Source: Valencia hispanica
Taxonomy: Eukaryota; Chordata; Actinopteri; Cyprinodontiformes; Valenciidae
NCBI GenBank assembly: GCA_963556495.2
Contig: OY747713.1
Span: 4,162,821 to 4,226,820 of the forward strand
DNA length: 64,000 bases
Direction: 5' to 3'
Positions 18,953 through 61,011 of this stretch are shown one piece after another (the first letter of the stretch is position 1; the number at the start of each line of letters is the position of its first letter). Below the pieces are notes generated by a model. It worked only from the letters and a program-made list of their open reading frames with translations, made no database searches and was not told the origin of the DNA. Both the position numbers and the translations under genes were made by a program.

Positions 18953-20785
18953 ATGAAGATGCTGCCTCTCAACAAGAAAATCCAATCAGAACCTCCAAAC
19001 TGTCATCACAGACTACAACGCTGCTGGTTCTGGTCTGTCTGCTGGTTGTTGAGTCCTTCATTATTTGCAGACTCTGTGAGTTCACATTGGCCTATGCTTT
19101 CTCCTAATTTTACTTTCTTAAATGTTAAAATGATATTTTTGAATGCAATACCAGGTTTAGGGTTGTGTAAAAACTTTTGTCTTTCTTTACTCAGCTTTTG
19201 TCGTTTGGATGACCAATCAAACTATCCACTCCCTGAATGAAGCTCTGAGGACAAATTGCTGCGGTGAGACTGTTTGGGTTTGAAATTATCCACAAATTTC
19301 TGTGTCGGATCACAATAACATGGAGCTCACTATTTAGTTTTACAATATTAGCAGCATTTATCGGGTTAATTTTCACCGGTGTTCATCTGTTTTCAATAAC
19401 CAGTGCCACAAAATGTATTTTTATTCTGTAGGATTTTAACAAAATGAGGCTGAATGAAACTAAAATGTTCAATTTTTCATGTTTCAAAGCAGAAAGCGTA
19501 AATGTTCCACCCCCTGCAAAATTTCCAGCACCACCCCCACCTTCTTCATGTCCACCACCTGCTTCATGTCCTCCACCACCTATAGTCCCATCACCACCTA
19601 AATATCCACCGCCTCCTATATCTACACATCCTCCTAAATGTCCGACACCATCTAAATGCCCACCACCTCCTAAATGTTCGACACCCCATCCAGCTCCTAA
19701 ATGTCCACCACCTCCTACATGTCCACCTCCTCCTAAATGTCCGACACCATCTAAATGCCCACCACCTCCTCAATGTTCGACACCACCTCCAGCTCCTAAA
19801 TGTCCACCACCTCCTACATGTCCACCTCCTCCTAAATGTCCGACACCATCTAAATGCCCACCACCTCCTCAATGTTCGACACCACCTCCAGCTCCTAAAT
19901 GTCCACCACCTCCTACATGTCCACCTCCTCCTAAATGTTTGCCACCACCTAAATGTCCACCACCTCCTACATGTCCACCTCCCCCTAAGTGTCCGCCACC
20001 ACTTAAATGTACACCACCTCCTACATGTCCGCCACCACCTCAAGCTCCTACATGTCCACCACCTCCTTCATGCCCTCAACCTCCTCCACCAATTCCCATT
20101 CCAAGAAGGAGTAAGTGACTCAATTGCAGAAACATCCAGTATGTCTTCCACCTGATTTGCTGACGTACTTTCTTTGTTGCGTTGATAGACGAGCCACGTC
20201 TGAGTTGTGGAGCAGACTGGGACCTAAATGGGGAAAGATGCTATTATTACAATAGCGGATTATTATCATGGGAGAATAGCAGAAGATTCTGCAAAGATCG
20301 CGGAGGAGACCTGGTGAAGATAGACAGCAGAGAGGAGCAGGTTTGAAACACTGCTGGTTTCACAGAATTAATTATGTTCCTTCATCTCAGCATCATTTTC
20401 ATTAACTTCTCCTATTCAGTTGTACCTGCAGAGAAAACTCAGAGACATGATGGTGGAGAGGGATGAGAAGTTCTGGATTGGACTGACAAACTCAGGGAGA
20501 GACGATAGATGGTCTTGGGTGGACAGCTCATCACTGCACACAAGGTTTGATTGTTGTAAAAACACCTCCATCTTCAGAATAAAGGTAAACTATTTTATAT
20601 GAACTTGTCCCTTTTGACCTTTTAGTTTGAGTTTTTGGAGTTCTGGAGAACCAAATTCCCGGACATGTGTGCAATCTGATGGGACGCGGGATAGAGGACA
20701 GGGTGATCATCTGAGGTGTTGTTGTCAAAGCTCCCATGATGTTTCCTACAAAAGTATCTGTGAAATAGCAGCAGAAACTGGATAG
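18953..20785 (+). CDS. Lectin gene B: type II C-type lectin-like receptor with expanded proline-cysteine stalk
   Basis: Exons are 18953-19075 (transmembrane), 19195-19263, 19493-20110 (stalk), 20189-20340, 20420-20544 and 20626-20785 (CTLD, TAG stop). All are in phase 1, 1, 1, 0 and 2 as in gene A. It keeps the Cys that gene A lost (RCYYY), so the N-terminal CTLD disulfide can form. The C-terminal part differs from A at RCCCQSSHD (A: RCWCQSSYD) and CEIAAETG (A: CEKAAETG). EPN is present and WND is absent. The stalk differs from A by a few residues but not in length. With exon 1 at 11975 it would be 424 residues. Confidence 0.85.
19493..20110 (+). repeat. Expanded Cys-Pro repeat exon of gene B
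   Basis: It has the same 618-bp length and three 33-residue higher-order repeats as gene A. Some repeats here read PQCSTPPPAP where A has PKCSTPHPAP. Two neighbouring repeats are more alike within B than to their A counterparts, which suggests repeat-to-repeat conversion after duplication. Confidence 0.9.
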
Positions 20786-28751: not shown

Positions 28752-28907
<156 letters not shown>

Positions 28908-31803: not shown

Positions 31804-33539
31804 TGTTGTACGTCATCTAAGATGGTTTCAGTTGAACCTTCTCAGGTCATTTCCATCACTTCCTTTGTGTTTTGCTGTAGATGTTTTGTTTATTTCTGCC
31901 CTCATTATTAAAGAGTCTGTTTAGTTTGACGGCTGCCAGCTTCTAGGTGATTTGTCTCTATTTGTGTCCTCAGGTTTAACCGTTCGCTGTGAGAAAAACA
32001 CTTCATCAGCTGCAGCCGCTGCAAATATTTGCCAAATAAACAACTGATATATTTAAAGGAGATCCTGCATTTACAGCTAATAAGAATGAGGTTAAAAAAA
32101 AAACAAAATGAAACAAAAAAAGTTTTCAGGTGAAATTTAATGATTATTTCAACATTTCTGGAAGTGGATTTTAATGTTCATGATGACGTCTTCATTAAAC
32201 CAGCATCTCTGCAGCTTCTTGATCCTGGACTCAGATTGTTTCACAGACTGAACTGAACCTCAGACACATGAACACAGTCTAGGTTCAGCTGCTTTCTCAC
32301 AGACACTTCTCTGAGGATATTCACAAGAAATATCAAACCAGGACTTCAGATCATCAGCTCCTCCTTTCTCCCCATCCTCACACAGTCAGCTTCAGGTGCA
32401 CCATTAAAACTTTTGCTGTCGGGTTCTCCATCATTCCAGAACACCAAACTTGGAGAAGAGTAGAAAAAAGAGAAGATAAAAGGCAGAGTGTTAAATATTT
32501 TAAATGTTTAACACTTTAAACACATGATTTCTCATCTGTCAAACCTCTCATCCAGTGCTGATCCGTCCAACCAGAACCATCTGCCTTCTTCCTTTGAGTC
32601 GCTCAATCCGATCCAGAATTTGTCTATTTTAGTATCCTCCATCAAGTCTCTCAGTCGTTTTAGCAGGAACATCTGAACAGAAGTTGATGAAAATGACTCT
32701 GTGAGACTTTTCTGTGCTGAGATGAAGAAACATGATGATGTGATAAAAGTGAGAACATGAACCTGCAGCAGTGATTCATACCTGCTCCTCTCTGCTGTCT
32801 ATCTTCACCAGGTCTCCTCCCAGATCTCTGCAGGAACATCTGCTCTCATTCCAGGAGGATTTACTGGTGCTGAAATAATAACAGGTTCCTCCATGTTGCT
32901 CCCAGCCTGCTTCACACTTCAGACATGTCAGATCTTTAAAGACAAAGACTTCAGTGAGTCAGGAGAAGAAATCTCTGTAGATGATGAGGCAGCAGGAGGC
33001 GTCTTCTGTCCTGCAGCTACAATCTAACTTCCTGCATCTGTCAGTCCATCAATGTCTCTTTAACATCATTAGAGGACAGAAATGGGACATAGACCAAAGA
33101 TTGGACTAACTTTTTACTGCAGGAGGTGGAGGACATGTTGGAGGTTTTGGTCCGTCTGTGGATTTGGTACATGTTGGAGATGGAGGACATGTAGGAGGTT
33201 TTGGTGGAGGACATGTATGTGTAGAATTTCCTGCGTGCATTTTTGTACTTGGATTCATTTCTATGAAAGAAAAAGATTATTATAATGTGAGATATTGAAG
33301 GATATTTTGGGCACTTTTAAATCTCGACCGTCTCACTTTTACTGATCAACAGTTTATACCCGCCGGCTGAAAGAATATATTCCAGTTGGGGTCAATTTAA
33401 ACAGAGAAAAGTAAAAGTTTATTTTCGCTTTTGAAACTTTAAATAAAACTTAGATCATCTTTAACTTATACAGAACAACAATAATATATAAATCCATAAA
33501 AACACACAAACTCACTGGCTGCAAGGCAGATGATGGTAA

Positions 33540-33543
33540 CTAC
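33540..33543. repeat. Target-site duplication CTAC (left)
   Basis: CTAC directly precedes the left LTR (TGTCGG...). The same four bases follow the right LTR at 45345-45348. Removing the provirus and one CTAC restores the reading phase of gene D exon 2, which confirms the insertion point. Confidence 0.9.
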
Positions 33544-34108
33544 TGTCGGCTTCTTCTCATTGTATGCTCTGGAACTCGCTTCTTTTTTTACTCAGAGAGG
33601 GGAGGGGCGCCGAACTCCAAAACCCCAGCGGGAACTGTTTCAAAATAAGACCCAGAGCTGAGAGACAGAGAGTAAAAACAACACAAACAGATATCTTGTT
33701 TGAAAAGGACGCACCTGCAGATGGGAGCCAGACAAAATCTGACTCGCTCTCCTACAAGGCTGTACCATTTTTATTTCCAAAAGAACAAAGAACATATCAC
33801 ATGACTCCTCTCTCCTCCTTCTACATCTTGACAGGTCATTTATTTTCTCCAGGTCTCCTGACCGTACCATGAACTGGATTGTAACCTGAATTAGAGTTAT
33901 ATCTGATCCTCCCTGCTTTCAATTCATATCTTTACTCAAGAGTTTGTTTACTTAAAACCTTCAACCCTATAAAATACTGGTAACAGAGTCATGTTTTACT
34001 ACCCTGAATAATATAAACAGGCCTATTACTTCTAAAGCTTAAAAAAGATATAATTAAAACATATGTACTGCATAATAAAAAATAGCCTCAAAAAAGTAGA
34101 ATACAACA
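33544..34108 (-). repeat. Retroviral 3' LTR
   Basis: This is a 565-bp LTR with TG...CA ends on the minus strand. An AATAAA poly(A) signal lies on the minus strand at 33770-33775, and a TATTTTATA box lies further upstream in the U3 sense. It is identical to the other LTR except for one base. Confidence 0.95.
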
Positions 34109-34122
34109 AATCCCTCTTTCAA
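34109..34122 (-). promoter_or_regulatory. Probable polypurine tract
   Basis: On the minus strand GAAAGAGGGATT abuts the 3' LTR, the expected place and composition for the plus-strand primer of a retrovirus. Confidence 0.6.
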
Positions 34123-34130
34123 TCTATTTT

Positions 34131-36059
34131 TCAAATAGATTGACCACTCCTCTGTACTTCCCCTTCAGGCTCCATGTGAGGGAGTAACAGATATTGACCT
34201 TGCACATTATCACCAACAGCTTTTTCAATACATTTTGTGAGCAAAGAACGTATACAAGGAATACAACAACATCCACATAACACCATAGTTGACACAAATA
34301 CTGCTAAAGAAACCATTATAGACATTGCCAGAGTCTTCCATTTACCAAACATATTATTTAACAAATTGTCCCACATTGAGGTATCTACACCTGATTGTTC
34401 TTTCAGCCTATTTGAAAGTATTCTGAGTCCTTCTACTGCCCTAGTTAATTTACCGTCTGCATTAGTATTATTAGGGATAAAAACACATCATTGATTACCA
34501 AAAAGGGAACAGACGCCACCGGTCTGAGCTAAAATCATGTCGACTGCTATTCTATTTTGAAATGCCATTAAGGAGGTGGCTTTAAGTTGCTCATGAACAG
34601 CCTCAAACCCATCTCTAGTATTATTAGCTAATTTCTGTACATTATAGTGTATATAGTTTATTCTATCCACGTTCTTGTTCAGGGTACACCACCAACAAAT
34701 ACTTGATTCCCATCCTGCTGAGATCTGATTAACCAATTTATATTCGTCTGGAACACCTCTAGGAACTCCAATGGCATCAATATAAGTTGAATCATCTTCG
34801 TGGCTTAAGTCCCTCTTTCTAACATGATTATTCAAAGTGAGAAGAGTCTGGTCTCCTGTGGGATCATAAGTAAATATTGCTACTGGCATAATTAATGTAA
34901 CAGGTGCACACAATCCTGTCCAATTACTAGGTAATATGGAGCGGAGAGTTTTTCCTCCACACCACCACCAGATGTCAGCACGAGCCTGAAAAGATTTAAG
35001 GAAAGTTTGAATTGAATTACAATATGTAATGTTGACTGAACCCACTAGTTTATTTCCAGGCTTACCATTTTTGAAACAAGTGAAATTATTTGGAGCTACA
35101 TTACTATCAAAGAAGGGTGGGGTAGCTCTGTTATCAGCTATAGGGAATACATTTTCCCAGTTACTACAATCTTTTACTGGATTTTCACTAGATAGCAGGG
35201 AAACCAGACAAGTTGTGCTGAGCGCAAAAGGTGCAGGGACCACCTTGAGAACAGGTCGGGCTCCCATGCACACAACACAGTCCTGTCTCGCTTCCTTTCC
35301 GGCCTGTTCTACCATAAGCAACCAATTATTAGTGGAGCCCCCCACTCCTGTCATCATTTCAAAGTAATCGTCCACCGATGGTTCTTCTTTAATTATACTA
35401 CCTCTTGCTGCTGAGGCCTGATTTTGACTTACTGAGGTGGAAACATTAAGAGAGTCTTGACATATTGTAATAGGAAATTGAACATCTTTTCCCCCTTTAT
35501 AAACCCAAATTATAAAGAGAGTACAACTTTCCCCCTTCTGGAGATATTTTAAGGGGAGGAGATCACTCTTAGTTAAATTAACCGTAAGAAGTAATTTATC
35601 TGCAGTCTTATCCAATTTTACCAAGGGACGCATGTGTTTTGCAAAAGAGGTAGTGGTATACCTTCTCCAGTCATATCCTAAAGGATCAGCAATTAAAGTG
35701 GACCAACTAGTATCTTTTTGATCATTCGTTATGTACCACAAGGGGTAGGTTTTATATTTACTTGCTTGTTGTCCCTTATAAACCAATGTATTTAAAGGAA
35801 TAGTAATCACTGCAGATCGTCCCTTTGGTATACAAAATTGAGAAAATCCATGATGTGCCTTGGAAGTGCCGCACCGTGAAGAGGGAGATGGTTTAGCCAT
35901 TAAGTTTCTTCTCTGTCTAATTGAGTGAACTCCAACCTGCGTTTGATTTGAAGAACTATTATAGGGCCATTCATCACAACAGTAAAAGATAATATTGACC
36001 ACTAACACCATGCAAAAACCTGTGGCGCACAGCACCTCCTTATTTCCCCAAAGATGCAT
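34131..36059 (-). pseudogene. env: Retroviral env, interrupted by UGA in the transmembrane subunit
   Basis: The open part is 523 codons (36059 to 34491, stop TGA at 34488-34490). It shows an N-terminal hydrophobic signal segment, a CVVC motif in the surface subunit (residues 261-264), a basic RKR cleavage site (414-416), and a transmembrane-subunit region with QNRIAVDMILAQTGGVC (501-517). This is the gamma-type immunosuppressive-domain/CX6CC region. The stop falls where the first Cys of the CC pair is expected. The same frame stays open downstream to 34131 and includes a membrane anchor (MVSLAVFVSTMVLCGCCC). The truncated product would lack the anchor. Confidence 0.85.
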
Positions 36060-37010
36060 ATTTCTGTCTGTGGTGTGATCCTATGTTTATTTTATCCAAA
36101 AAAGAAGGGTGGCTGTTTTTTTTTTTATCTTTACCTTTAAGCAATATTTTTTCTAATTTATTATTGTTTTTTTTATGTTTTATCCTAATTCTCAATATTC
36201 TTTTAGTAAAAGCAAACTCTAGCAATTGTCACCAACCCTAAAAACATCCTACAAAAACCACATCATAATGAAAAAAGGATAAGTAAAACAAAAATTAGTA
36301 GTCAGTCAACCTGATTATACTTTAAACACTCCTTAAAATATTTTAGCTTATTACTAAGAAGTTTTATAAAACCGTAAAAACTGAATATTAAGAAAAAATC
36401 CTACAAATCGACTACTTAAAAATTCTTTGACACCCTCTTAGGCAGTGTCTACCAATCTGCACCTGTAAATAAAAATCGGTTAAACAACCTGTAAAATACA
36501 AGAAAAATGATTAATAAGTGTTCAGTCTTTATTATTTTGTTCTCTAGTCTTCGCTCTTGTTTATTTCTCTGGCAGCAGGTGGCTACCAGAGTGATGAAAA
36601 GATTCAGTACAGTGGACTCTTTATTTTTCCCAAAGTTACTGTCTTTTCTGCAGATCGCCCTCACTGAAATGACAGTTACTTCATTAACTGAGCATTTCCC
36701 CCAATAAACACAAATGCACAGACAGGCCCCGCCTCCAATAGCTTCCCCCACCGATTGTGAGGTGGTCAAAACCTGCTGTGAAATGTGTTTGATTTCTTGC
36801 GATCTTTTCTCTTCGGTACAATCCCTCTTCGAGAAAAGCAAGTCCAAATTGCTTATCTCGCCCAATTTTTTTTGCACATATAGATTACACTGGATGATTA
36901 CAGCAACTTCAACCAATCTTCTGGGTGGGTCAGGCCCCGCCTCCTGGCTTCGGCAGTCGACACCGCCTAGTCAGAACCGACACCACCCGCTGCAAAGAGA
37001 TTCTCCCAGG
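36060..37010 (-). other. Unusual pol-env spacer of about 950 bp with a 155-codon open frame
   Basis: Simple retroviruses usually overlap pol and env, whereas here about 950 bp separates them. An open frame on the minus strand at 36449-36916 (155 codons) has a hydrophobic stretch (LFITLVATCC) and a Cys-rich part (GGGACLCICVYWGKC). I recognise no family. It may be a decayed accessory gene, captured sequence or chance. Confidence 0.35.
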
Positions 37011-39215
37011 TCAGCAGAGAGCTGCTGCAGCGTGAGGGACAGGAGAGGGGTCGGGGGCCGGAGCACACTGAGACCAATGAAACCAAGTAGAACCCTTTCC
37101 CCGCAGCTGGACAGCATGGGTTGTACGAGCAGCAACCTGGAACGGGCCAGACCACCTTGGCTCCTGCCACTTTCTTTTATACACCCTTAGCCAAACACGC
37201 CCAGCCTCGGAAGGAGACACCGCAGGTCCCTGCACGTCACGGGGAGCCGGAAGGAAGGAGGAGACGAGGCCCTTCAGCTGCTGATGGTCACTGCGAGGGT
37301 CCGGGTCAGGGTGCGGTGACACCTGTGGTTCTCTGCCCGCCCACGGACCAGGAAAAATTCGGCCGGTTAACATCTCATAAGGAGTGAGACCTTTTGTTCT
37401 ACAGACAGATGATCTCATGGACAACAACGCAATGGGGAGTGCATTCAGCCAATTAAGTCCCGTCTGAGCTGTAATCTTTGCCAGCTTTAACTTCAAGGTT
37501 GAATTAGACCGCTCGATGACGCCCTGAGATTGCGGATGGTAAACAGTGCCGAACTTGTGGGTTATTCCCATCTGTTCCTCAACCTGTCGGAGATGTTTAT
37601 TTTTAAAATGTGTGCCATTGTCAGACCTGATCCTAGTCGGAAAGCCATGGCACGGAATCCAGTGGTTTATCAAAGATTTCACCACTGTCTGAGCATCCTC
37701 CCGTTTTGCAGGAAAAGCTGAAACCCACGAGGTCAGTGGATCAATCATCACTAACAGGTAACGGAAACCTCTAACAGGGGTCACCATATCTGTATAGTCG
37801 ATAACGACCTCCTCGCCAGGCCTGCACAAGTCCTGGAAGGCGCCCATTTCTGGCTTGATAGTAGGCTTAGGATTAAATTGACCACACACCACACATTCAC
37901 TCAAAAAACGCTTAATTAAATGTGGCAGGAAGGGATGCCACCAAAAACAAAGATTACGTTTCATCTGAGTGTATGACACATGTGCCGCACCATGAGCCTC
38001 CTGAAAAAGAGTGGGTTTTAACGCGGCAGGTAAAACCAAACGGCCATCAGGCACACGCCAAAAACCATCAGAAAAAATCGCACCTCTATCCTTCCACACA
38101 GTTATCTCCTGCGACGCAGCAGCCTGCTGTGCCAACTTCACTTCCTCAGCAAAACTGTCTGACATTTCCTGTGCTGACGTGACAATCAGCTGCGTGTGGA
38201 CATGTGACAGGTAGCCTGCTGCTCCCTTTGCCGCCAAGTCTGCAGCCCTATTTCCCCACGCGTCAACAGTGTCAGCCTTGCTGTGACCCTTACACTTAAG
38301 AACAGCGAGGTTAGCTGGTAACTGTACAACATCCAAAAGCTCCATAATATCTGCATGATGGTGTACAGGTTTACCAGTAGCAGTAACAAAACCTGCTCTC
38401 TTCCACTGTGGTAATTCATAATGTATAACAGAAAACCCGTAGTTCGAATCAGTGTAAATCGTGACGTCTTTATCTCTTCCCCATTTGCATGCTTCAATAA
38501 GAGCCCTTATCTCAGCACGCTGTGCGCTCTGCTTGCCGTCCAGCTTCCCTGAAACAACAGTCTGTAGTGAATCTCCATTCTGCTCAACAACTGCAAAACC
38601 TGATCTCAACTGGCCCTGTCCATCTCTGAAACAACAACCATCTGTATAGAGCACAAAACCTGTAGGTAAGGGATCAGACCGTAAATCAGGACGTATTTTT
38701 TGAGCAACAGAATTCAGCCTGACACAGTCATGCTGCTCCCCAGAGGCGGTGATTTGGTCAGCCATGTTTATTCCTTCATGCGTAAAAATAATGTTTGGTG
38801 CCTCCAAAACTCTGCTAATCTGCTGCTGACGCAAAGTAGAAAGAGTAAACGTCTCAGAATTAACCAATGCCATGACTCCATGAGATGTCAAAATATTAAG
38901 TGGATAACCCCTAACAATGTGTGAAGTTTTCTCCACTAGGTGTGCAATTCCTGCTGCATGTCTCGTGCAAGGTGGCTGTCTCATTTCAATAGCTTGCAGC
39001 TTTATGCTAAGATACATAAGAATGTATCTCTGACCACCTTTTTTCTGAAACAAAATCCCATTAACCACCCCATCTGTTTCTGATGTGTTAAGAAAAAATG
39101 GACATGTATAGTCAGGAGTGCCTAAATCAGCTGCTTGTGCTAGAGCCTGTTTCAACTTAATAAATGCCTCCTCAGCTGGTATGTCCCATTCTAATTTAGC
39201 ATGCAGATTTTTCAT
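37011..39215 (-). pseudogene. pol: Retroviral pol: RT connection, RNase H and integrase
   Basis: This is a 734-codon open frame. RNase H motifs are at residues 191-192 (YTDG), 235 (E in AQRAEI), 256 (TDS) and about 319 (D in VDAWGNRAAD). The integrase zinc site is H408/H412/C441/C444. The catalytic residues lie in VIDYTDM (about 473-476), IRSDNGTHF (D532) and VIERSNS (E568), and a GPF-type C-terminal module lies at about 688-705. These domains look intact. The frame differs from the upstream RT piece because of the deletion at about 39283. Confidence 0.9.
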
Positions 39216-39226
39216 ACCATGAGCAT

Positions 39227-39886
39227 TTACAAGAGCCCTGAGTGGTGTGGTAAGGTTTGTGTAATCAGTACACAGCCTGGAGGGAGCTGTACAGTGCTTA
39301 ATGACTGCTTCAACACCTGATTAAAAATACCTGGAGATAAAGCAAAACCCTGCGGAAGCCTACTATAACGTAGCTTCCTGCCCCTGAATGTAAATGAAAA
39401 AATATCTCTGACAGAAGGATGGAGCGGTAAACAGAAAAATGCATTAGCCAAATCTATGCAGGTAAACCATTTTAAATCAGGAGTCAGTGATGCCAGAGCT
39501 GTATACGGATTCGGTGTAGAAATGGGAGGGGTTCTAAGGGCCTCATTAATAGCACGCAAATCATGTGCCATTCTGTATTTACCAGTACCTTGTTTTTCCA
39601 CAAGAAGAATAGGGGTGTTATATGAAGAGTTTGATGGTTCTAAAACTCCAACTTCAAGTAAGCCTGCAATAGTGTCTGCAATACCTTCCTCAGCCTGAGG
39701 TTTATGTGGGTACTGAGAATGCCAGATTGGATCAGAATGTTTCATCTCAAATGTGATGGGTGTGGTTTGCACTAGACCAACATCAGTGGGACCATCTGAC
39801 CACAAAGAGTCAGGCACGACCTTTAAGGCCTCCACTGCATCAGGATGATCTGTTTTTTCTCTGCCATGATTTCTAGAAAGCTGCAA
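39227..39886 (-). pseudogene. pol: Retroviral reverse transcriptase fragment lacking the YxDD box
   Basis: The 219 residues contain the fingers and early palm: KYRMAHDLRAIN, the first catalytic Asp in FTCIDLANAFF, and LPQGFALSPGIFNQVL. The text then jumps to the connection region, and the YxDD catalytic box and the segment after it are missing. The deletion junction is near 39283 and also shifts frame, producing a stop at 39227. The RT is therefore inactive. Confidence 0.85.
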
Positions 39887-39889
39887 ATG

Positions 39890-40783
39890 TTACAGAATGG
39901 TAGTATCAGAGAGCTGCGTGTCTATTTTGTACATCTGAGTAGAAGGAGAAAAAGAGACTGAAGGTATCTGGGTAGAAACCCAATCCTTTAATTCAACTCC
40001 CCTCTTAACCATTCCCCCCAAATCTTTAGCTTGATGTTTCGGATGCAACAAAAGCGATATGTGTGGAAGCGCTTCAGCTTCCATCATATACCATTTATGC
40101 TGCTCTGAAGTCAGATCAGCATACAGTGCCACACCCTCCTTCCCCACAAAGCATGGACCCGAAGCCACAGACCAACTTTGGCCTTCAAGTTCTGTTTCAA
40201 ATTGTTCCTGATATAAAATAGGATCGCTTCTCTCATAGAGGAAGGTCACATGGAACGGGTCAGGCGGTGGAACAAAAGGCTGGAGTTCAAGCAGCCAAGG
40301 CTTCCAGCATCTCAGAAAGTCAGCCGCAGAAGATTCATGTGCAGACATCGTAGTCAATCTGGCCCAGAAAACATCAGCCACTTGTGAAGTGTCATCCTTC
40401 AGTAAAAATTGACCACTCATGGTGTCACAGCAATGCATACGTCCATTCGGAAAAGTCACCATAAGTCCATCAGGGGTACATAGGATAGTAGCACCAAGTT
40501 TGATAAGCAGATCTCTGCCTAACAAGTTGACAGGCGTGGTTTGAGCAATGACAAAAGGATGTGATAGTCTTTGATCTCCCACTGAAACAGGCAATGGTTG
40601 AGTTATAGGGAGAGTCATTGGAGCCCCAGAGATTCCGATCACAGACACTGTGTTCCCAGAAAAATTGACGTCTGGTAAAACTCTGTCCAATGTGCTGAAA
40701 GTAGCACCAATGTCAACAAGGAAAGGCAATGAATGTCCATGTACGTCTATTGTGAGCATCGGATCCCCCTTTGTCCTGCTCAC
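39890..40783 (-). pseudogene. pro: Retroviral aspartic protease region
   Basis: This is a 297-codon frame with the flap-side LLGRDLL motif and FLVDIGATFS at residues 21-30. The catalytic D is present, but the following residue is Ile where Thr or Ser is usual, so activity is doubtful. It is in the same frame as gag, separated by a single UGA at 40805-40807, as in readthrough-type retroviruses. It ends at TAA (39890-39892), still in frame with RT. Confidence 0.8.
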
Positions 40784-40804
40784 TAAGGTACTCTGTGGGC
40801 ATTG

Positions 40805-42948
40805 TCAATACTGAGGCCCACTCTGTCCTCCTGGATAGGAGGGAGGAGCCATATGCTGATTCGGAGCCATATGTAGAGGTGGCTGACCGGGAGGTATAGC
40901 GCCCCCTTGTGGGTGTGGGCACTCCCTCACCCAGTGTTCATTGGAGCCACACCTGTGACAACCGTTAGCACCTGGCTGCCCTCTCCCCATGCCTCTAAAA
41001 TCCCCAAACCTGGCCCTGCCACGTGACCTGCCACGAGGCTGCCATGTCCTATAAGGAGCAGTAAATGGCGGATTCGGCGCAGCTCCAGCATACATCACAG
41101 GAAAAGAAGGCAGCACTGTCCCTGATCCAACAGTAGGTGCTGCTTCAGCCACCATCTGTTTCACTTTTTTAGACTGATACAAGTCAGTCAATTTATTCTG
41201 AGCCTCTTTTAACTGTAGTTTTAACAAAGCAGTCTCCATTTTCTTATTCTCCTCAGCGTCCTTTAACGCAGAATCTTGCCCATCTTGTAAATAATATGTT
41301 ACGTGTCTTTCCCATGAAGGCTGATCATAAATGTGTGAATCAGGATTCCGTTTCATTAATGTAGCAACAGACTCTGGCATGCCTGCTAAAACTGCTTCTC
41401 TAAACCAAATCCGATTATTTCCCGGATCTCGAGGATGTTCTCCAGTAACTGCAACCCATTTATCTTTACATTTTGCTATATGTTCTGCGGGAGTAACATC
41501 AGTTGACCAGGGAAATTTCAAAATTTTAGACGCAGGCGGAGTAGGATATTTTCTTCTGACCCACTCGGCAAGCTCATATGCATGATGCGTGAATGGGGCT
41601 TCATCAAGTACACATGCTAACTGGCACTGGAGCATCATCTCATTATAAACTGTCAATGTCAACATTCTACCCATAATAGCTTTCCAATCCCCCACCGCTA
41701 GGGTTTGCCCTCAAGTCAGCTGATTTAATTTATTTATCCAACAGTTTCCTCCACCAGTCAAAGCAGGGAGTTGCAGAATGATGGCAGATATGTCAGCCAT
41801 CTTCCATGGTTTGTAAATTACTGAACCATCTGATGCTCCCACTAAAGGAAGCATTAAATCAGGGCCTCCACTTGCCCCCAGTGACACCTGAGATCTGGTA
41901 TTCTTAAATGGTCCCTCACTCCCCTTGTCCCCTAACGTCTGCATATTTTTGACCTGTAGAACCGCTGCACATTCATCACGTTGAGTGGGGCTGGCACTCC
42001 CTGAAAGGTCTGCAGCTTGACCCCTTACCACAGATGCTAATCTTTCCTGATCCTGCAGCACCCCATCCATCTGTAGCTGAACTTTAGTTAACCTGTGTTC
42101 GTGCTGCTCCATCTCATCGATCAATTTAGCATTATACGCCAAGAACAATTTATCGGTGCATTCTAATTTGTTGCTAACTAAATTTAGTAGCTGTCGCTTT
42201 TCCTCCCCAGTGTGTTCTACAACCCCTTTACCGGTGACTTCAAAACGCAATTTATAATCTTGTCCATCATCTTTTACCTTTAAATCACCCTGTGGTTTTT
42301 TAGTCAATGGTTCATGGGCTACAGACCTCTGTGGGAGGCCACTCCAGTGCAACACTGCACTGCTTGAAGGAAGGGGGGGAGTAATGCCCACCGGGGGTGG
42401 CTCACAAAGAGATGGTGAACTCGGTGCGTCACCCTGCGTGTTTTGAAGTATAATCTGGCCATTGTCTGTCTCCAAGCCCCATGAAATATGTGTTTGACCA
42501 GAGGTCGTCAATATGGGGTACATAGGTTGATATGGGGGAGGGATATGGTCTGCCGAAAAACTATTTTCTGCAGTAACACACAAATGATCAATACCCTGTC
42601 CTGCTAAACCCCATGTTTTCCACATTTTCTCAGATTTAAGAGTCTCATTTTAGCACCAGTGATGCTCTTTGCTGTTTTAGCTTTATCTGCATAACGTTTC
42701 CCTTCCTCAAAACACATTTGTGACAAACTTCTTTTGTCGTCTCCTCGGGCACCATGACGAGCCCACATGGCCGTCATAAGGCCCTGGAACTGGTTTTTAT
42801 CTTTTTTACCGGGCTTATCAACTAAAACAGAATATAATTTAGAAATGTATATTAACAATTGGGCATCTAAAGTACTCCAGTTTTGTCCCTGTGGAGCAGG
42901 AAGTAATTTATATTCAGCTGCCATTGAATATTCGTAACAAAAATCCAA
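40805..42948 (-). pseudogene. gag: Retroviral gag, broken at two places
   Basis: The matrix-like start is 42948-42604. The frame then changes within a short overlap near 42604-42625 and continues to a UGA at 41711-41713. The same frame resumes to 40805 with capsid-like sequence (from VGDWKAIMGRM) and a nucleocapsid CCHC knuckle (CHRCGSNEHWVREC, residues 246-259 of the last part), flanked by an RG-rich stretch. The terminal UGA at 40805 is probably the authentic gag stop before pro. The first two breaks look like inactivating mutations. Confidence 0.85.
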
Positions 42949-44757
42949 AATGGATAAAAATTTAACAAAGTAGGTTATTTGTATTAACTCTTATAAATTA
43001 TGTATTTTAATTGATAAACTATCAATTCGTAGGCCCAAATTTATCCCAATATTAATGCAGTTAACAGTAAAGGCAGGCACCGTTTTTATTTATTTAATTT
43101 ATTTCTTTTTATAGTGAAGGAGTTTATACATTATTTATTCATGCAACATTAACCTTAATAATGTTTTAGGCAAAGCCGAAACGAAGGAAAGCTAAAAAGG
43201 TTTATAACGCACTGTTTATCTTATCATTAATTTATTTATATACGGAGATTATTGCCGTTTCATCTAAAAATCAAAGAATTCCTAATAGAGTCCGGCCTGC
43301 GCCAAAACTCGGGACGCACACTTCGGTGAAACACACGAAGAAATAGAATTCTCCCAATATAAAGCAATTTTTATTTATCATTAAAACATATACCGAAAGA
43401 AATACATTTAAAACTCGCTTTGCAACACAAAATCGTCAACAGTTTGCTCAAAAAAAAAAAAAAAAAAAAAACTCAGCCGGACTGACAGATCAAAGTCCGG
43501 CCCAATAAAACTTCCGTGTCACACCGCGGAATGAATACGCCGGTGCACAGATGGCTAATTCTTCACTACGATGCTAAACCTATCAAACCGTACTCATAAG
43601 TAAACCAACCAAAGACAAGAACAAAATGCCTCCAACAAAACCACACTTCGCCATCAATACTCGAATGACTGTTTAACCGAGCCAAATAAATACAGTTCGG
43701 AAGCTAAGCTACCAAAGATTAGCTGTCATCATGAGCAACCTAGCTCAACCGGAAGCCAAACGTGACCGCTCCGTTATCATAAAAAGTAATTTTATATATA
43801 TTCTATAGAGTTTACTACCAGTTATTCATAATAACAGTCCTATATATATGTGTTAGACAATGCTTTAGACGTGTTTACGTAGTTGCACAAGGTTGAACGC
43901 CTTTATTTCCAGGCGAAACTCATCCAAACTGTGCGTTAGCTGTAAGCTAACTTATGGGGGTACTTTAGCTGACTGAAAATGATATTCCCTTATTCCTCTA
44001 CAATGTCAAGCTTCTACGCTTATTGTCTATACAAGAAGCGAGGGCATTGTCTAGGCGTTTAAGATTCGCAGAGGAATTATGGTTTTAGATTCAGTCGGTT
44101 AGTTCCCCTAAATGAGAAGTTTATGTGAGGCCGGAGTGCAAAAAGCTACCTGGTAGCCCTTTTTTCCGTCACCGCGACTTCTCCAATCACACACACATTC
44201 ATCCGAGAGAAAGAAAGAACAACAATTTTTACAAGCTCATCAAACACTAACCTCTACCGGAGCCACCTAAAGCCGGACCTTTAAACACAATCCAATTCAC
44301 GTGGCTCAAACGTGCGTTTGGAAGATACGCCGGCCTCTCCAAGGGAATCCGTCTAGACAACAGAGAGCACACAGGCTCTTAACTGCTGTCTTTTCTCGCT
44401 TGCCAGCCTGGGAGATTTCCGACAGCGTCCCATCGGATCTGAGCGGCCAACTCTCAAGCCTGGTCCGCACTTCGGTCGACCCTCAACCGAAAAAACAACA
44501 CGTCAACATTAAATGGAGAACGTTTAAATCGATCAATACCTATTAATTTGGTGTTAGCGCTTTTCCAGATTGATACAAAACCACCCGGGTGTTGATTAGC
44601 AAGGATCAATCCAGTCGCTCTCCGAATCTCTGTTGAACTCAAAGAAAAAACACAAAATCACTATAATTGCCACAAACACATGTATCAATCAGTTATGCCA
44701 CACTCATTACTCACACTCAATCTCTCCCAGCCCTGAGAAAACTCAAAACCAAATCAA
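42949..44757 (-). other. Retroviral leader (untranslated region before gag)
   Basis: About 1.8 kb lies between the primer site and gag. It contains a homopolymer of about 20 bases at 43451-43470 (A on the plus strand) and no recognizable gene. It probably holds packaging and splice-donor signals, which I could not assign. Confidence 0.5.
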
Positions 44758-44776
44758 ATGCCCGCATCCTCCACCA
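44758..44776 (-). promoter_or_regulatory. Primer-binding site matching tRNA-Ala
   Basis: On the plus strand ATGCCCGCATCCTCCACCA matches the 3' end of a tRNA-Ala with CCA, over 19 nt. It lies three bases from the 5' LTR end, the normal place for minus-strand priming. Confidence 0.8.
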
Positions 44777-44779
44777 TTT

Positions 44780-45344
44780 TGTCGGCTTCTTCTCATTGTA
44801 TGCTCTGGAACTCGCTTCTTTTTTTACTCAGAGAGGGGAGGGGCGCCGAACTCCAAAACCCCAGCGGGAACTGTTTCAAAATAAGACCCAGAGCTGAGAG
44901 ACAGAGAGTAAAAACAACACAAACAGATATCTTGTTTGAAAAGGACGCACCTGCAGATGGGAGCCAGACAAAATCTGACTCGCTCTCCTACAAGGCTGTA
45001 CCATTTTTATTTCCAAAAGAACAAAGAACATATCACATGACTCCTCTCTCCTCCTTCTACATCTTGACAGGTCATTTATTTTCTCCAGGTCTCCTGACCG
45101 TACCATGAACTGGATTGTAACCTGAATTAGAGTTATATCTGATCCTCCCTGCTTTCAATTCATATCTTTACTCAAGAGTTTGTTTACTTAAAACCTTCAA
45201 CCCTATAAAATACTGGTAACAGAGTCATGTTTTACTACCCTGAATAATATAAACAGGCCTATTACTTCTAAAGCTTAAAAAAGATATAATTAAAACATAT
45301 GTACTGCATAATAAAAAATAGCCTCAAAAAAGGAGAATACAACA
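44780..45344 (-). repeat. Retroviral 5' LTR
   Basis: This is the 565-bp partner of 33544-34108, with TG...CA ends and the same TATA-like and AATAAA signals. It differs by G instead of T at 45333. Confidence 0.95.
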
Positions 45345-45348
45345 CTAC
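45345..45348. repeat. Target-site duplication CTAC (right)
   Basis: This CTAC directly follows the provirus and matches 33540-33543. Confidence 0.9.
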
Positions 45349-45431
45349 CAAGATGGCAAAGAGCACCAGCAGGACCACTAGCTTTAAGGTGACCTTTGAC
45401 TTCATGCTCTGTCCAACTGGTTGAACATTTG

Positions 45432-46893
45432 CTGCACACGTTGCACAGACTGGAGATTGGAAACAGATACACTTCTGTCAAAAAAAGTCCAATAACTCAA
45501 CCACATGTCTGATGTTTCATCCTGACATGTATGGAATAATAAGCTTCTCCTTCTGTAAAGGGGTCCTTAAATTTAAAACTGAGCAAAGCTCTGCATCATA
45601 GGCCATAGACACCTCCCCTTAAATTTACATGTCCCTGTAAGTGGGTTCGAGCGATGCGCATGTAAGTTGATTGACAGCCGACAAGCCAGAAATTCGAATT
45701 CTATTGGCTAAAAGAATTCGCAGCTCAGTGTGAAATGCATAGGCGTCTATGGGAGGAAGGCAGGACTTAGGAAGATTCAAAAATGTTGTGGAGCGCTAGT
45801 CTTTTGTCATAGTATTGAACCCCACTATCATTTTAAAGATATATAAAACTTTGATACATAAATATATTCTCCGGACTGCAGCTTTAACAGGGATGATCTG
45901 ACCCTAGACCAGTGACCGGCTGACACTCTTAATCAGAACAATACGGCCGCCATGTTTATTCCAGGTTGAACATCTGAAGCACTGAAACAGCTCTGATTAA
46001 AGTAACTAAGGATGATCTCGTGGCCTTAGATAATGGACCACAGGGCTACAGTATGAGTCCTCTTTCTATCTACAAACATAATGTGGGATCTATAAGGAGT
46101 TTTAATGGTTCTGTGTAATCCAAGCCTAAATGGTGGTTGGTTCTCATTTTAGGCAACACCTCTGAAGAAGAGCTAAAAAAGAGGAAAGTCAGAAGAATCA
46201 CACACAGCAGAAGAGCAAACTGAAGCGATGACACTGTGCGTTGTGATCGCTATATATATATAAATTACTTCTGCTTAGAAGCTTCTTCACTTGTCGCTTC
46301 TTAGAAAACTACTCTGGTGTTAATGACATACATACATATCTTACATACATATCATAAAAGTTACTCGCTGTGGGTAGAGGAGCAAGAAATTTTACTCCAG
46401 TAAGACTAGCGATACTTCATTAAAATATTACTCAAGTAAAAGTAAAAATTACGGTTTAGTAAAACTACTCCAAAATTTTACTAAAGTAAATGTCACTAGT
46501 TTCTACCTGCCTCTGCTGAGCTGTCAAACACTGGTACATTTGTTTTTCAGCTACTTTTGGTTTTCCTGTTCAATAAAAAAGCATAAATCATCTCTTAAAC
46601 AGACATCGAATTCCACATTTTAATAAAAATATCAGTCTGTTAATTAAAAACAGGACTGCACAAAAACATAGACTTGGGTTTAATTTAAGACTTGGATTTA
46701 ATTTTGAATCAAGTTTAAGTTTAAATTTTTCTTAAACAAACCTTGCTCTTGAATTTGTGGCCTTCTGACTGTAGAATAGACAACATTAGCTGCAGGAACC
46801 TCATCTGCACAACAGAAAACACAGAGGAGTCAATGGGGAGGAGATTAAAGACTGGAACTGATAAGATGTAGGTAGGCTGGGAGGTAGGCTTAC
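45432..46893. other. Intron 1 of lectin gene D with unclassified repeat
   Basis: This lies between exon 2 and exon 1 of gene D. About 45560-45900 resembles a promoter-like fish MITE (CpG-containing, ending near GGACTGCAGCTTTAAC) and 46248-46262 is a short TA run. No other gene was seen. Confidence 0.45.
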
Positions 46894-46948
46894 CTTTGGC
46901 CTTTTTTGTAAACTTCACATCAACGTATGTTACATCAGCTTCAGCCAT
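46894..46948 (-). CDS. Lectin gene D exon 1 with ITIM-like motif
   Basis: ATG at 46948 opens 18 codons (MAEADVTYVDVKFTKKAK) plus one base, ending at a GTAAGC donor. VTYVDV fits the inhibitory motif [I/V/L/S]xYxx[V/L]. This is the only cytoplasmic exon in the window with such a tyrosine motif, so gene D was probably the inhibitory member of the cluster. The phase matches exon 2 at 45431. Confidence 0.75.
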
Positions 46949-47767
46949 CCTTCTGCTGTGACTCTGAGACACCTCAGATATTACTTTAAGCTTTAAAAAG
47001 CTTCCTGAAGACAGCTAGGGCTGTCAGATCAGAGAGGAAGTCCCAAATCAAGCCAATGGCATGCAGTGTTAACTTCATGCAGTGAGTACACAGTTTTAAA
47101 TCACAAATCATGCACTGTTATGAACCACACAATTTTAATCCATGTGTCAGAACACTGAACATGTTGCGTATCTGCAGTTCTGTTGGTCTTTAGGAGGGGG
47201 TGCTTTATTTTGCTAGTTTTTCTGCTGGTATTTATTAGAGAGTTGACAGAGCTGCCCAAAACAATGCTCATCAATCATTTCCCTCTCTTATAAAAGCAAA
47301 AAAACACCACACTCATCTTACAGGATTGGCCCAGAAGCCTGTGAAAATTCACTAAAAGCTGGTATGTTGGTTGGTGTTGGAGGAACTGAAGACAGGTTTT
47401 TTTTTTGCCTAACAGTGGTGGGTTCAGTTTAAACGCTGATGTCAGCCTTTGCAGCTCCTCCTTTAGCTGAGAGACAAAAGTCTCCAAGCAGACGACCTGT
47501 CAACATCAGGGTGAATTCGACATCGATCAGAGGCCTATCTAAAGTAAAACAAGGCTTTTATTAGGAATTGCCACAAACTCATAGATGCACATTTTGTAGG
47601 TATCCTAGCGCTGCAGTAGATCCTAATGTTAAATCCGTTCAGCCTTTTCCAACCCTAACACCTCTAATTAGTGAGTTGATTTGTTTGTAGATTGGCGTCC
47701 AAGAGCTAAGATAGTGTTTCCTGTAGTGACATGGAGTATCTGACCAATGAAAAGCTATTTTCTCACA
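46949..47767. other. Upstream region of lectin gene D; no gene recognized
   Basis: This lies 5' of gene D exon 1 and should include its promoter. I could not identify specific elements. A 70-codon open frame at 47275-47487 (minus) has no recognizable motif. Confidence 0.35.
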
Positions 47768-49965: not shown

Positions 49966-50700
49966 GTTTTTATTTAACATAGAAAGTAATTCTGCATCAT
50001 ATTGTTTATTTTTTATGCATCTGCTCTGGCTTCTCAGACCCCCAGTCGGTTATGGCAGACTTTCCTGCTTCCTGCTTCGCTGCAATTGGCTGCTTCGCTA
50101 CTTCGCTCTCCCTTCTGCTTGCATTTTTCTGCATTTTTCAGCTTATTTTTTATTTTTTTCCCCCTTATGATCCGACCTGCAGGACTTTTGAATACATATA
50201 CATTTATGGGAAAAACCTTTTTTAGTAGTAACGGCAATATTTCATAGATCTTTTACCTTCAGCGCTCTGTGTGTGTGGCCTACACACAGCTGAAGCCTGA
50301 TCTACAGCATCTAAGTACTTAGCATTCAGCAGGCAGAGATAACACCACCAAGAAAGAGGGAGCCTCTGCTCATTACATTAAATCACAGAGTGATAATCCT
50401 CCCTGGAACTGTCTTGGTGCTAAGCCAAAAACTAAATCATGTCTCTGTGAAACGGGAGGACGTAGTGCAGGCTAGACACAGCGAGTGGAAATCTGTGATG
50501 ATACCGACTGGCCTGCACTCCCTACAAGAGAGAGGGCTTCTTCTACTCCCATACATGAGAGGACACGGGACAGAACAGCTGCAAATGGGAAAGTTAGCCA
50601 CAGACTTTCAAAACAACCGAATGTGAAGCTGCAGAACAGATTTGCTTCACTGTTGGAGAACCCTGGATCTTAATCTGACGACCATCCACCCCAAGGCAGC
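49966..50700. other. Intergenic and 5' region of the next LINE
   Basis: No host gene was seen. About 50260-50700 runs without a break into the LINE ORF1 below and is probably its 5' part. Confidence 0.4.
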
Positions 50701-50703
50701 AAG

Positions 50704-51486
50704 ATGAGGACTGATAACCTGTCAGAGAGTGAGAGGCCACAGAGAAAGCAAAAGACTGGGCCTGAAACTCTGATTGTAGGTGATTCCTCTGTAAAGGACG
50801 TTCAGTGGATGTGTGGAAAGAACACCAAAGTCCTCTGCTTTCCAAAGGATATGGTCAGTGACATGCAGAAGAGGATTCTGAAAACTGTGACTAAATATCC
50901 AACAGTGAAAAACATTGTTCTCCACACAGGGTCGAATAATGTGTCCAAGCAACAATCGGAGGTTCTGAAACGGGACTTCACTGGATTATTGAACACCGTG
51001 AGCTCGTTGGATGCAGCAGTATTCATCAGTGGACCTTTACCACCCATCAGAGGGGGAGAAGAAAGATTTAGCCGTCTTTTGGCATTAAATAAGTGGATTT
51101 TATCTGCATGTCCTGACAAAGAACTGCAATTTATTAACAACTTTCAGATTTTTTGGGAGTGTAGACATCTTTTTAAGGCAAATGGATTTAGTTTGAACAG
51201 GTCAGGTGTAAGACTGTTTACCTTCAATATTTTCTACTTCCTGCGTCATCCCTCTGTGCTTGGAGCCAAAAAGGAGATACACAAAGACTTATCTCAAAAG
51301 GAAGACCTACCACCCCACTCCCCCCATCTGAAATTCACTCAGCAGATAATGGAGCAAGTCAACATTGGGCTCAGATCTACCCCCCAGACCAATTTGTTTT
51401 CTTTACCAATAAACCCCACACCAGGACGATCAAAGGTAGGGCAACAAGCCCGGCCCCCTCCTACCCCACCACGTAAGCATGTGTAA
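50704..51486 (+). CDS. LINE ORF1 with esterase-like (SGNH) fold, decayed motifs
   Basis: This 260-codon frame has VGDSSVKDV (block I GDS), SGPLPPIRGGEERFSRLLALN, and FKANGFSLNRSGVRLF. In the last block the usual D-G-x-H of SGNH hydrolases reads N-G-F-S, and the third block reads GSNN, so catalytic residues appear lost. It belongs to the esterase-type ORF1 proteins of L2/CR1-like LINEs, which act in retrotransposition particles. A proline-rich tail precedes the TAA stop. The endonuclease of the same element follows. Confidence 0.75.
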   Translation: MRTDNLSESERPQRKQKTGPETLIVGDSSVKDVQWMCGKNTKVLCFPKDMVSDMQKRILKTVTKYPTVKNIVLHTGSNNVSKQQSEVLKRDFTGLLNTVSSLDAAVFISGPLPPIRGGEERFSRLLALNKWILSACPDKELQFINNFQIFWECRHLFKANGFSLNRSGVRLFTFNIFYFLRHPSVLGAKKEIHKDLSQKEDLPPHSPHLKFTQQIMEQVNIGLRSTPQTNLFSLPINPTPGRSKVGQQARPPPTPPRKHV

Positions 51487-59608: not shown

Positions 59609-61011
59609 CTGTGGAGGACCAAAACTGACATAATTAAGAATAAAAGCAGAAATATATATGTTTTGTTTTTCCTTTACCTTATACATGCATTTTTGCAAAG
59701 AAATTTATATACTTTGTTTTTCCTTTTCCTTATATGTGCATTTTCTTAAAGAAATGTATATATTTTGTTTTTCCTTTTCCTTATACGTGCATTTCCATCA
59801 AGAAATGTTTATATTTTGTTTTTCCTTATATGTGCATTTTCGTCAAGAAATGCAAATATTTTGTTTTTCCTTTTCCTTTATACGTGCATTTCCGTCAAGA
59901 AATGTATATATTTTGTTTTTCCTTATACGTGCATTTTCGTCAAGAAATGCAAATATTTTGTTTTTCCTTTTCCTTTATACGTGCATTTCCGTCAAGAAAT
60001 GTATATATTTTGTTTTTCCTTATACGTGCATTTTCTTCAAGAAATTTATATATTTTGTTTTTCCTTTTCCTTATACATCTATTCCTTGTTTTTACATTCC
60101 CTCGTCTCCTCTTTTTACTTTTCCTTATGCATTTCTCCCTCATTATGCAAATGAGGAGGGCTGCCCTTCTTGGTGCTGCTCCTCTACTATTGGTCAATAA
60201 ACAGGAAGGAGCAGGATCCATGTGCAGATTGATTGTGCATGACTGCGCTTTTGGCCTTTCAGCAGAATTACTTGTTTGATAGAAAGTGAACTCCTACCAG
60301 AGATGTCCCAGACGATTGCTGAAGAATTAAGGCACATTGCTATCTTAGCTGAAAGTAATAGAGTCAGTGACGATTATTTATTGTTTCGCGTAGACATTTT
60401 GGGTGAGAGGCTACTCCAGTTAGCTGCAGACACGGAAAATGAAGCTGACCCATTAGTTCTCCAGATTTTGGAAGAAGTGGCTTGTCGCTTGCAAACGTAA
60501 CTCCGACACAGACCGTCTTTGTGCTCCCTCCATAACTGTACTTTGGTTGCTAAACTGAAGCCAAAAGCGCAATCATGCACAATCAATCTGCACATGGATC
60601 CTGCTCCTTCCTGTTTATTGACCAATAGTAGAGGAGCTGCACCAAGAAGGGCAGCCCTCCTCATTTGCATAATGAGGCAGAAATGCATAAGGAAAAGTAA
60701 AAAGAGGAGACGAGGGAATGTAAAAACAAGGAATGGATGTATAAGGAAAAGGAAAAACTCAATATATATATTTCTTGAAGAAAATGCACATATAAGGAAA
60801 AACTAAATATATACATTTCTTGATGGAAATGCACGTATAAGGAAAAGGAAAAACAAAATATATAAATTTCTTCGCAAAAATGCACATTTAAGGAAAAGGA
60901 AAAACATAGTATATACATTTCTTGAAGAAAATGCACATATAAAGGAAAAGGAAAAACAATAGATATATTTCTGTTTTTATTCTTAATTATGTCAGTTTTG
61001 GTCCTCCATAG
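59609..61011. mobile_element. Palindromic DNA element with minisatellite arms and a small ORF
   Basis: The ends read CTGTGGAGGACCAAAACTGA and, inverted, CTATGGAGGACCAAAACTGA. The direct repeat TTCTC flanks them at 59604-59608 and 61012-61016. The left arm (to about 60260) and right arm (from about 60555) are reverse complements and carry arrays of a repeat with alternating 45- and 53-bp periods (core TATACGTGCATTT, then CAAGAAATG), more copies on the left. The inner arms also match over about 130 bp. The loop holds one open frame (60276-60500). The superfamily could not be assigned. Confidence 0.8.
60276..60500 (+). CDS. 74-codon ORF in the loop of the palindromic element
   Basis: It starts MIESELLPEM and ends CRLQT before TAA. 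The sequence is acidic and predicted helical (EELRHIAILAESNR, ILGERLLQLAADTENEADP, VLQILEEVACRL), resembling in style the N-terminal helical part of some fish transposon proteins, but I cannot name a family. It is the only open frame in the element and spans most of its loop. It could be the remnant of a transposase gene or a small retained protein. Confidence 0.45.
   Translation: MIESELLPEMSQTIAEELRHIAILAESNRVSDDYLLFRVDILGERLLQLAADTENEADPLVLQILEEVACRLQT

What the first reader, a model, noticed from the sequence alone, without database searches (positions are those of the whole stretch)
33516..45431. A young provirus splits the transmembrane exon of an ITIM-bearing lectin receptor
The provirus ends (TG...CA) are flanked by CTAC on both sides. 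Taking out the element and one CTAC joins 45345-45431 to 33516-33543 into a 111-bp exon whose phase fits exon 1 (46894-46948) and exon 3 (33337-33366). The tail encoded by exon 1 has VTYVDV, an ITIM-like motif. With LTRs differing at one base, an inhibitory immune receptor was probably interrupted recently and may still be intact in other individuals.
Basis: partly seen in the sequence, partly recalled or inferred. Interest (0 to 1): 0.88.

Follow-up and report, generated by a model that had tools for sequence, protein, structure and literature searches.

The report
Retrovirus splits fish inhibitory lectin receptor
In what is likely a killifish-group genome, a provirus that probably inserted recently sits inside the membrane-spanning exon of an immune-type lectin receptor gene with two predicted inhibitory motifs, so this gene copy is likely a null allele; a separate one-base frame change in the same gene leaves open which damage came first.

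Summary
A provirus at 33544-45344 (565-bp LTRs, one mismatch, CTAC on both sides) lies inside a 111-bp transmembrane exon of a minus-strand C-type lectin receptor gene. Removing it with one CTAC restores frame and splice phase; keeping two copies or none does not. Homologous fish proteins run through this place unbroken. I add a second ITIM-like exon (VVYSTV, 46742-46804) and a Pro/Cys stalk exon (33111-33230), giving eight exons. So this allele was hit twice, and whether the receptor was intact when the virus landed is open. The provirus is a class I (epsilon-like) element with several interrupted frames, in the gene's orientation. Host transcripts would probably end in its 5' LTR, leaving at most a headless 93-residue stub with both motifs. 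No empty allele could be sought: no fish DNA collection is held and the genome search did not complete. Likely a null allele of a known kind.

The parts
33544..45344 (-). provirus, class I (epsilon-like) endogenous retrovirus, same orientation as the host gene
   Evidence: paired LTRs and TSD; RT, RNase H, integrase, protease, zinc knuckle in Pfam
44780..45344 (-). 5' LTR; AATAAA at 45080 and 45011 on the gene's strand
33544..34108 (-). 3' LTR
   Evidence: single mismatch at 34097
45345..45348 (.). target-site duplication CTAC, copy on the exon 3a side
33540..33543 (.). target-site duplication CTAC, copy on the exon 3b side
46894..46948 (-). host exon 1: start codon, ITIM-like VTYVDV
   Evidence: 44 tblastn matches of homolog tails start in 46800-47099
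   Evidence: tblastn of Poecilia latipinna P0001 tail against intron 1, E 7e-5; splice sites
45345..45431 (-). host exon 3a: first part of the transmembrane exon (with its CTAC copy)
33516..33543 (-). host exon 3b: rest of the transmembrane exon (with its CTAC copy)
33337..33366 (-). host exon 4, 30 bp
   Evidence: phase and splice sites; TCPPPP-like stalks in several homologs
32782..32933 (-). host exon 6: first lectin-domain exon
   Evidence: Lectin_C 7e-15 over the joined model
32545..32672 (-). host exon 7: second lectin-domain exon
32260..32448 (-). host exon 8: last lectin-domain exon with a one-base frame change at 32367-32373 and a stop at 32346-32348
   Evidence: two neighbouring paralogs have one base more there
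34488..36080 (-). env open piece, ended by one in-frame stop about 118 codons before the end of the frame
34131..34487 (-). rest of the env frame, same phase
37011..39320 (-). pol piece: RNase H and integrase; other frame than the upstream piece
39227..39889 (-). pol piece: RT
39890..40804 (-). protease-bearing piece, ends at a stop in the same frame
40805..42649 (-). gag region in two pieces of one frame (41711-42649, no Pfam match, and 40805-41710 with a zinc knuckle)

Best explanation
A class I endogenous retrovirus sits, in the sense direction, inside the transmembrane exon of a C-type lectin receptor gene with two ITIM-like motifs, and this gene copy is likely a null allele. Shown: the exact insertion with its 4-bp duplication, the restored exon on paper, the second ITIM-like exon by homology, the frame change in the last lectin exon, and the interrupted viral frames. 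The eight-exon model is a prediction from splice sites, phase and homology. Inferred: transcripts starting at the host promoter would run into the 5' LTR and mostly be cut and polyadenylated there (AATAAA at 45080 and 45011), so the lectin exons would not be reached. Transcripts starting in the 3' LTR would lack exons 1, 2 and the first part of exon 3, and would end in a truncated lectin domain. Also inferred: the insertion is recent, since only one of 565 LTR positions differs, and may therefore still be absent from other individuals.
For: LTR pair, ends and TSD. Only the one-CTAC join keeps the frame through to the lectin domain. Poecilia latipinna and P. formosa proteins P0001 and P0007 run through the insertion point without a break; the TM exon matches P0001 at 21 of 37 residues. 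Pfam Lectin_C 7.2e-15. Exon 2 by homology, E 7e-5. Apart from the two lesions the gene looks fresh: at 61 columns conserved in at least 90% of 87 homologs it departs at 4 (L to I, A to T, T to S, I to V); the 87 others, scored the same way, depart at a median of 1 (0-8), and 10 of 87 at 4 or more. The read-through of exon 1 and exon 3a into the LTR meets a stop at codon 73; with exon 2 it is 93 residues.
Against: No RNA data, so termination in the LTR is not seen. Skipping the 111-bp TM exon would keep the reading frame, so some transcript could bypass the provirus, though it would encode no membrane anchor and still end early. The frame change means the allele may have been dead before the virus came. 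Three in-frame stops beyond the gag/pol one are more than the LTR distance predicts since integration (0.30 expected, P 0.0036; P 0.24 at the upper limit of the LTR distance), so either the virus was already defective when it landed or the LTR date is too young.
Confidence: 0.82

Rival explanations
1. The gene was already a pseudogene: the one-base change in the last lectin exon came first, and the provirus landed in a gene no longer under selection, with no consequence.
For: The frame change is independent of the provirus and removes the last two conserved cysteines. A neighbouring copy also shows wear: the one at 8.3 kb has W where its twin has a conserved lectin-domain cysteine.
Against: The frame beyond the change is still open and carries the conserved residues through to the end, and departures at conserved columns are few (4 of 61), so any earlier death was also recent.
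Confidence: 0.35
2. The frame change is a sequencing or assembly error in a short G run, and the provirus alone broke an intact receptor.
For: The change lies next to GGGG, where single-base errors are common. Between the two 12-kb tandem copies all 3 single-base gaps lie in runs of one base. The other exons of the gene are open.
Against: Those 3 are the only single-base gaps in 11,908 aligned bases, beside 89 substitutions, so the indel error rate looks low.
Confidence: 0.2
3. The insertion makes a new protein: a headless membrane stub with both ITIM-like motifs, ended by the LTR, that recruits phosphatases without binding a ligand.
For: Exons 1, 2 and 3a run in frame into the LTR for 24 more codons and keep a hydrophobic stretch (mean 2.94 over 19 residues, against 3.45 in the native TM). 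AATAAA signals follow in the LTR.
Against: A frame staying open for 24 codons is common by chance (about one in three, worked by hand). No RNA or protein evidence; the hydrophobic part now holds Pro and Arg.
Confidence: 0.06
4. Assembly chimera: the provirus was placed in this gene by mistake.
For: Only one assembled sequence was available.
Against: A perfect 4-bp duplication and an exon that closes in phase to the base are not expected of a misjoin.
Confidence: 0.02

Closest known systems
[quoted passage not shown]
   Same: Env 39% identical over 93% to the SSSV envelope (P0230); RT-RNase H best matched by p80 RT/RNase H entries; total length 11.8 kb, near the 11.2 kb given for ZFERV (PMC4977317, passages)
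   Different: The closest Env is an unnamed protein at 62% (P0196), so it is not a close copy of either; this copy has several interrupted frames. No RT tree was made.
Teleost immune-related lectin-like receptors (ILLR) and CD209/CLEC4E-like or 'hepatic lectin-like' genes of cyprinodontiform fish
   Same: ITIM-like tail, one TM, Pro/Cys stalk, one C-type lectin domain; [quoted passage not shown]
   Different: Broken by a provirus and by a frame change; strict orthology to any one gene is not resolved
Recently inserted polymorphic fish proviruses, such as the foamy virus near alkal2a in swordtails (PMC12642411, abstract and passages)
   Same: Young full-length provirus in a cyprinodontiform genome, flanked by near-identical LTRs
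   Different: There a foamy virus in an intron is linked to higher expression of a nearby gene; here an epsilon-like element interrupts a coding exon, and polymorphism is untested
Sense-oriented LTR insertions that truncate transcripts (Fas-lpr early transposon insertion in mice; recalled, no call)
   Same: LTR polyadenylation cutting an immune receptor transcript is the mechanism proposed here
   Different: The mouse case lies in an intron and is experimentally shown (recalled)

Membership tests
Class I (gamma/epsilon-type) endogenous retrovirus | paired LTRs with TG...CA ends and a 4-bp target duplication (size class recalled) | tested here: met
Class I (gamma/epsilon-type) endogenous retrovirus | pol most similar to gammaretroviral RT-RNase H and integrase | tested here: inconclusive
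   RT-RNase H stretch: best solved matches are p80 RT/RNase H entries, E 1e-49 (gammaretroviral by recall; one lower row is named XMRV). Integrase stretch: best solved match is the foamy virus (PFV) integrase, E 4e-26. MLVIN_C 20 bits, under its cut-off of 29.2
Class I (gamma/epsilon-type) endogenous retrovirus | gamma-type Env (TLV_coat family) | tested here: met
   own hit 21.5 bits, E 1e-4, just under the 22.5 cut-off; by my count 111 of the 120 listed relatives, of 334 found, carry PF00429
Class I (gamma/epsilon-type) endogenous retrovirus | CX6CC motif in Env | tested here: inconclusive
   104 of 120 relatives have it; not found in either open piece here, and the frame is interrupted in that part of the protein
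SSSV/ZFERV lineage | placement in an RT tree | not tested
   only Env identity was used
ITIM-bearing type II C-type lectin receptor (teleost ILLR-like) | cytoplasmic ITIM, (I/V/L/S)xYxx(I/V/L) (consensus recalled) | tested here: met
   VTYVDV and VVYSTV; 59 of 120 homologs have at least one such motif, 50 two or more (wider pattern)
ITIM-bearing type II C-type lectin receptor (teleost ILLR-like) | single N-terminal TM and C-terminal lectin domain | tested here: met
   on the joined exons only: hydropathy 3.45 over 19 residues, Lectin_C 7e-15
ITIM-bearing type II C-type lectin receptor (teleost ILLR-like) | complete lectin domain with its last two conserved cysteines | tested here: not met
   frame change in exon 8 ends the domain early; so the allele as it stands is a broken relative, not a working member
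ITIM-bearing type II C-type lectin receptor (teleost ILLR-like) | inhibitory signalling through SHP phosphatases | not testable with these tools
   needs cells

The most novel reading that the evidence does not exclude
The provirus has turned a ligand-binding inhibitory receptor into an LTR-terminated, headless two-ITIM membrane stub that acts without ligand, and carriers and non-carriers of this allele coexist, giving a natural on/off test of an inhibitory lectin receptor in fish.
Probability: 0.05. Interest if true: 0.72.

Novelty: new member of a known kind. Interest (0 to 1): 0.38.

Why it matters
This gene is the only one with ITIM-like exons that I found in a 64-kb cluster of at least five related lectin genes (diverged or out-of-window exons could be missed), so losing it could shift the local balance of inhibitory and other receptors. 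If the insertion is polymorphic, the species would offer a natural knockout of a predicted inhibitory lectin receptor. If it is fixed, it is one more case of gene loss in such a cluster.

Tried and rejected
Empty allele in the same species: could not be sought. Seven calls to the genome search did not complete, and no fish DNA collection is held. In the protein database the best-scoring hit to the receptor was 53% identical over 99% of the query, and the highest identity in the listed rows was 77% over 55% (120 of 373 rows listed), so no same-species intact copy was seen there. The same held for the 62-kb paralog (best 69% over 99%), so the species was not identified.

Rfam scan: 0 matches. 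Env against solved structures: 0 matches. Other ITIM exons: a search for start-codon exons in six stretches found only exon 1; tblastn of the first 60 residues of 59 homologs at E up to 0.01 found the focal exons, TM-exon matches at 25.4 and 63.7 kb, and one weak hit at 61.1 kb (E 0.004) that lacks the motif. A protein tree did not resolve the strict ortholog (31 of 195 listed lectin homologs, chosen by hand). A primer-binding-like site, TGGTGGAGG..., begins 3 bases after the 5' LTR; I could not assign its tRNA. My first script for exon 2 failed to find it (length 0) because its search region was cut too short and a motif mistyped; one search has the right coordinates. Papers: seven searches; going by titles and openings of abstracts, none listed describes a provirus in a coding exon of a fish immune receptor. 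PMC11505477 (passages) only showed illr4 as a zebrafish neutrophil marker.

Rows left out: one search aligned 15 of the 120 listed homologs; one search dropped 33 of 120 for covering under 80% of columns.
Full report
Insertion. The window holds a provirus at 33544-45344 on the minus strand. Its LTRs (565 bp each) differ at one position and end in TG...CA, and CTAC stands on both sides. The host gene runs in the same direction. Joining the flanks with one CTAC gives an open 111-bp exon in phase with its neighbours and with fitting splice sites. Keeping both CTACs or none breaks the frame. This is a clean retroviral integration, not chance.

Gene model. I predict eight: 46894-46948, 46742-46804, 45349-45431 plus 33516-33543, 33337-33366, 33111-33230, 32782-32933, 32545-32672 and 32260-32448. 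Exon 2 was found with the tail of Poecilia latipinna P0001 (E 7e-5) and adds VVYSTV to VTYVDV. Of 120 listed fish homologs 59 have at least one such motif in the first 80 residues and 50 have two or more (with a slightly wider pattern), so a double ITIM-like tail is usual in part of this family. Exon 5 encodes a TCPPPP-type stalk. The lectin domain matches Pfam Lectin_C (7.2e-15) and, among solved structures, mannose-receptor-family, CD209 and CLEC4 entries.

Homologs and host. The nearest proteins are 'hepatic lectin-like', CD209-like and CLEC4-like genes of Poecilia, Gambusia, Fundulus, Poeciliopsis, Ilyodon, Kryptolebias and Xiphophorus. I looked up the order Cyprinodontiformes for Kryptolebias, Ilyodon and Anableps and recall it for the rest. 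The host is likely a member or neighbour of that order; its species was not found. In P0001 and P0007 the protein runs straight through the place of insertion (GILVVTII against AILVVTII). In a tree of 33 rows the focal gene falls in a half in which 16 of 18 database rows have an ITIM-like motif, and the 62-kb paralog in the other half, where 3 of 13 have one; but the dividing fork is weak (78/99) and strict orthology is open. Whether such fish genes belong to the NK-receptor group V or to group II has been disputed (PMC514892, passages).

Second lesion. The last lectin exon has one base fewer than two neighbouring paralogs at the same place. The frame then meets a stop at 32346-32348, and the two last conserved cysteines are lost. 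Beyond the change the other frame is open to the end and carries the expected residues. At 61 well-conserved columns the focal protein departs at 4; 87 homologs depart at a median of 1, range 0-8, and 10 of them at 4 or more. So the gene shows no long decay, though it is on the high side. An error in a short G run is possible. Two 12-kb copies in the window differ by 89 substitutions and 8 gaps over 11,908 aligned bases; 3 of the gaps are single bases, all in runs of one base. That suggests few indel errors, but of just this kind if any.

Provirus. Pfam finds protease, RT, RNase H, integrase and a zinc knuckle in separate open pieces. The RT-RNase H stretch is most like p80 RT/RNase H entries (1e-49; gammaretroviral by recall), while the integrase stretch is most like foamy virus integrase among solved structures (4e-26). 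[quoted passage not shown] Fish genomes mostly carry epsilon-like and spuma-related elements, and the SSSV-related ZFERV is 11.2 kb long (PMC4977317, passages). Epsilon-like is therefore my best placement, from Env; no RT tree was made. In this copy the gag region is split by an in-frame stop, a further stop follows the protease piece, pol changes frame near 39.3 kb, and env meets one in-frame stop about 118 codons early. The stop at the gag/pol border may be the normal read-through site (inference).

Age. One difference in 565 bp gives K = 0.0018, 95% interval 0.00004-0.0099. At 3e-9 to 1e-8 changes per site and generation (rates recalled) this is about 90,000-300,000 generations, with an interval from about 2,000 to 1.6 million. 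The 12-kb tandem copies differ by 0.75%; the LTR value is lower, but not significantly (P 0.077). About 0.3 new stops would be expected in the coding pieces since integration, against three seen beyond the gag/pol one (P 0.0036; 0.24 at the upper LTR limit). The copy was therefore probably defective when it integrated, which would need help from another virus, or the LTRs are older than they look. Neither was tested further.

Mechanism. Host transcripts would meet the LTR's AATAAA signals at 45080 and 45011 and probably end there; this is a known effect of sense LTRs (recalled) but was not observed here. The open frame would then be 93 residues with both motifs, a hydrophobic segment and 24 LTR-coded residues. 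That such a frame stays open is not surprising by chance. Skipping the split exon keeps the frame but removes the anchor. None of the routes considered gives a membrane-bound complete lectin from this allele.

Context. The window holds at least four further related lectin genes, near 8, 20, 26-27 and 62 kb. None has an ITIM-like exon that I could find, though the start of the 62-kb gene may lie beyond the window and a diverged exon could be missed. A recent case in swordtails shows that young proviruses segregate in fish of this order and can have effects (PMC12642411, abstract and passages), but that is a foamy virus in an intron near another gene.

Verdict. The reading 'recently interrupted inhibitory receptor' is half supported: the interruption is real and inhibition is predicted from motifs, but an independent frame change means the virus may have hit a gene already broken. 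Polymorphism is a fair guess without a test.

Noticed in passing
1-24701: Head-to-tail segmental duplication with a period of about 11.9 kb; copies differ by 89 substitutions and 8 gaps over 11,908 aligned bases; each carries a lectin gene.
   Followed up: partly
7611-8114 and 19537-20040: Long Pro/Cys repeat (18- and 99-bp units) in the stalk region of the duplicated lectin genes; a much longer stalk than in the focal gene.
   Followed up: partly
8274-8414 and 20200-20340: One duplicated lectin copy has W where its twin has a conserved C of the lectin domain; the twin in turn differs in its last lectin exon.
   Followed up: no
59612-61008: Inverted repeat (about 400-bp arms, 92% alike) made of 51-bp tandem units; hairpin-like element of unknown kind.
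   Followed up: no
28753-28902: Perfect (AG)75 microsatellite.
   Followed up: no
50674-51486: Open frame of 270 codons (260 from the first ATG) with no Pfam match, beside a GC-richer stretch at 52-56 kb.
   Followed up: no
45432-45459: Sequence just upstream of the TM exon reads PVCATCA and matches the tail of a Fundulus protein, so the exon may use two in-frame acceptors 18 bp apart.
   Followed up: partly
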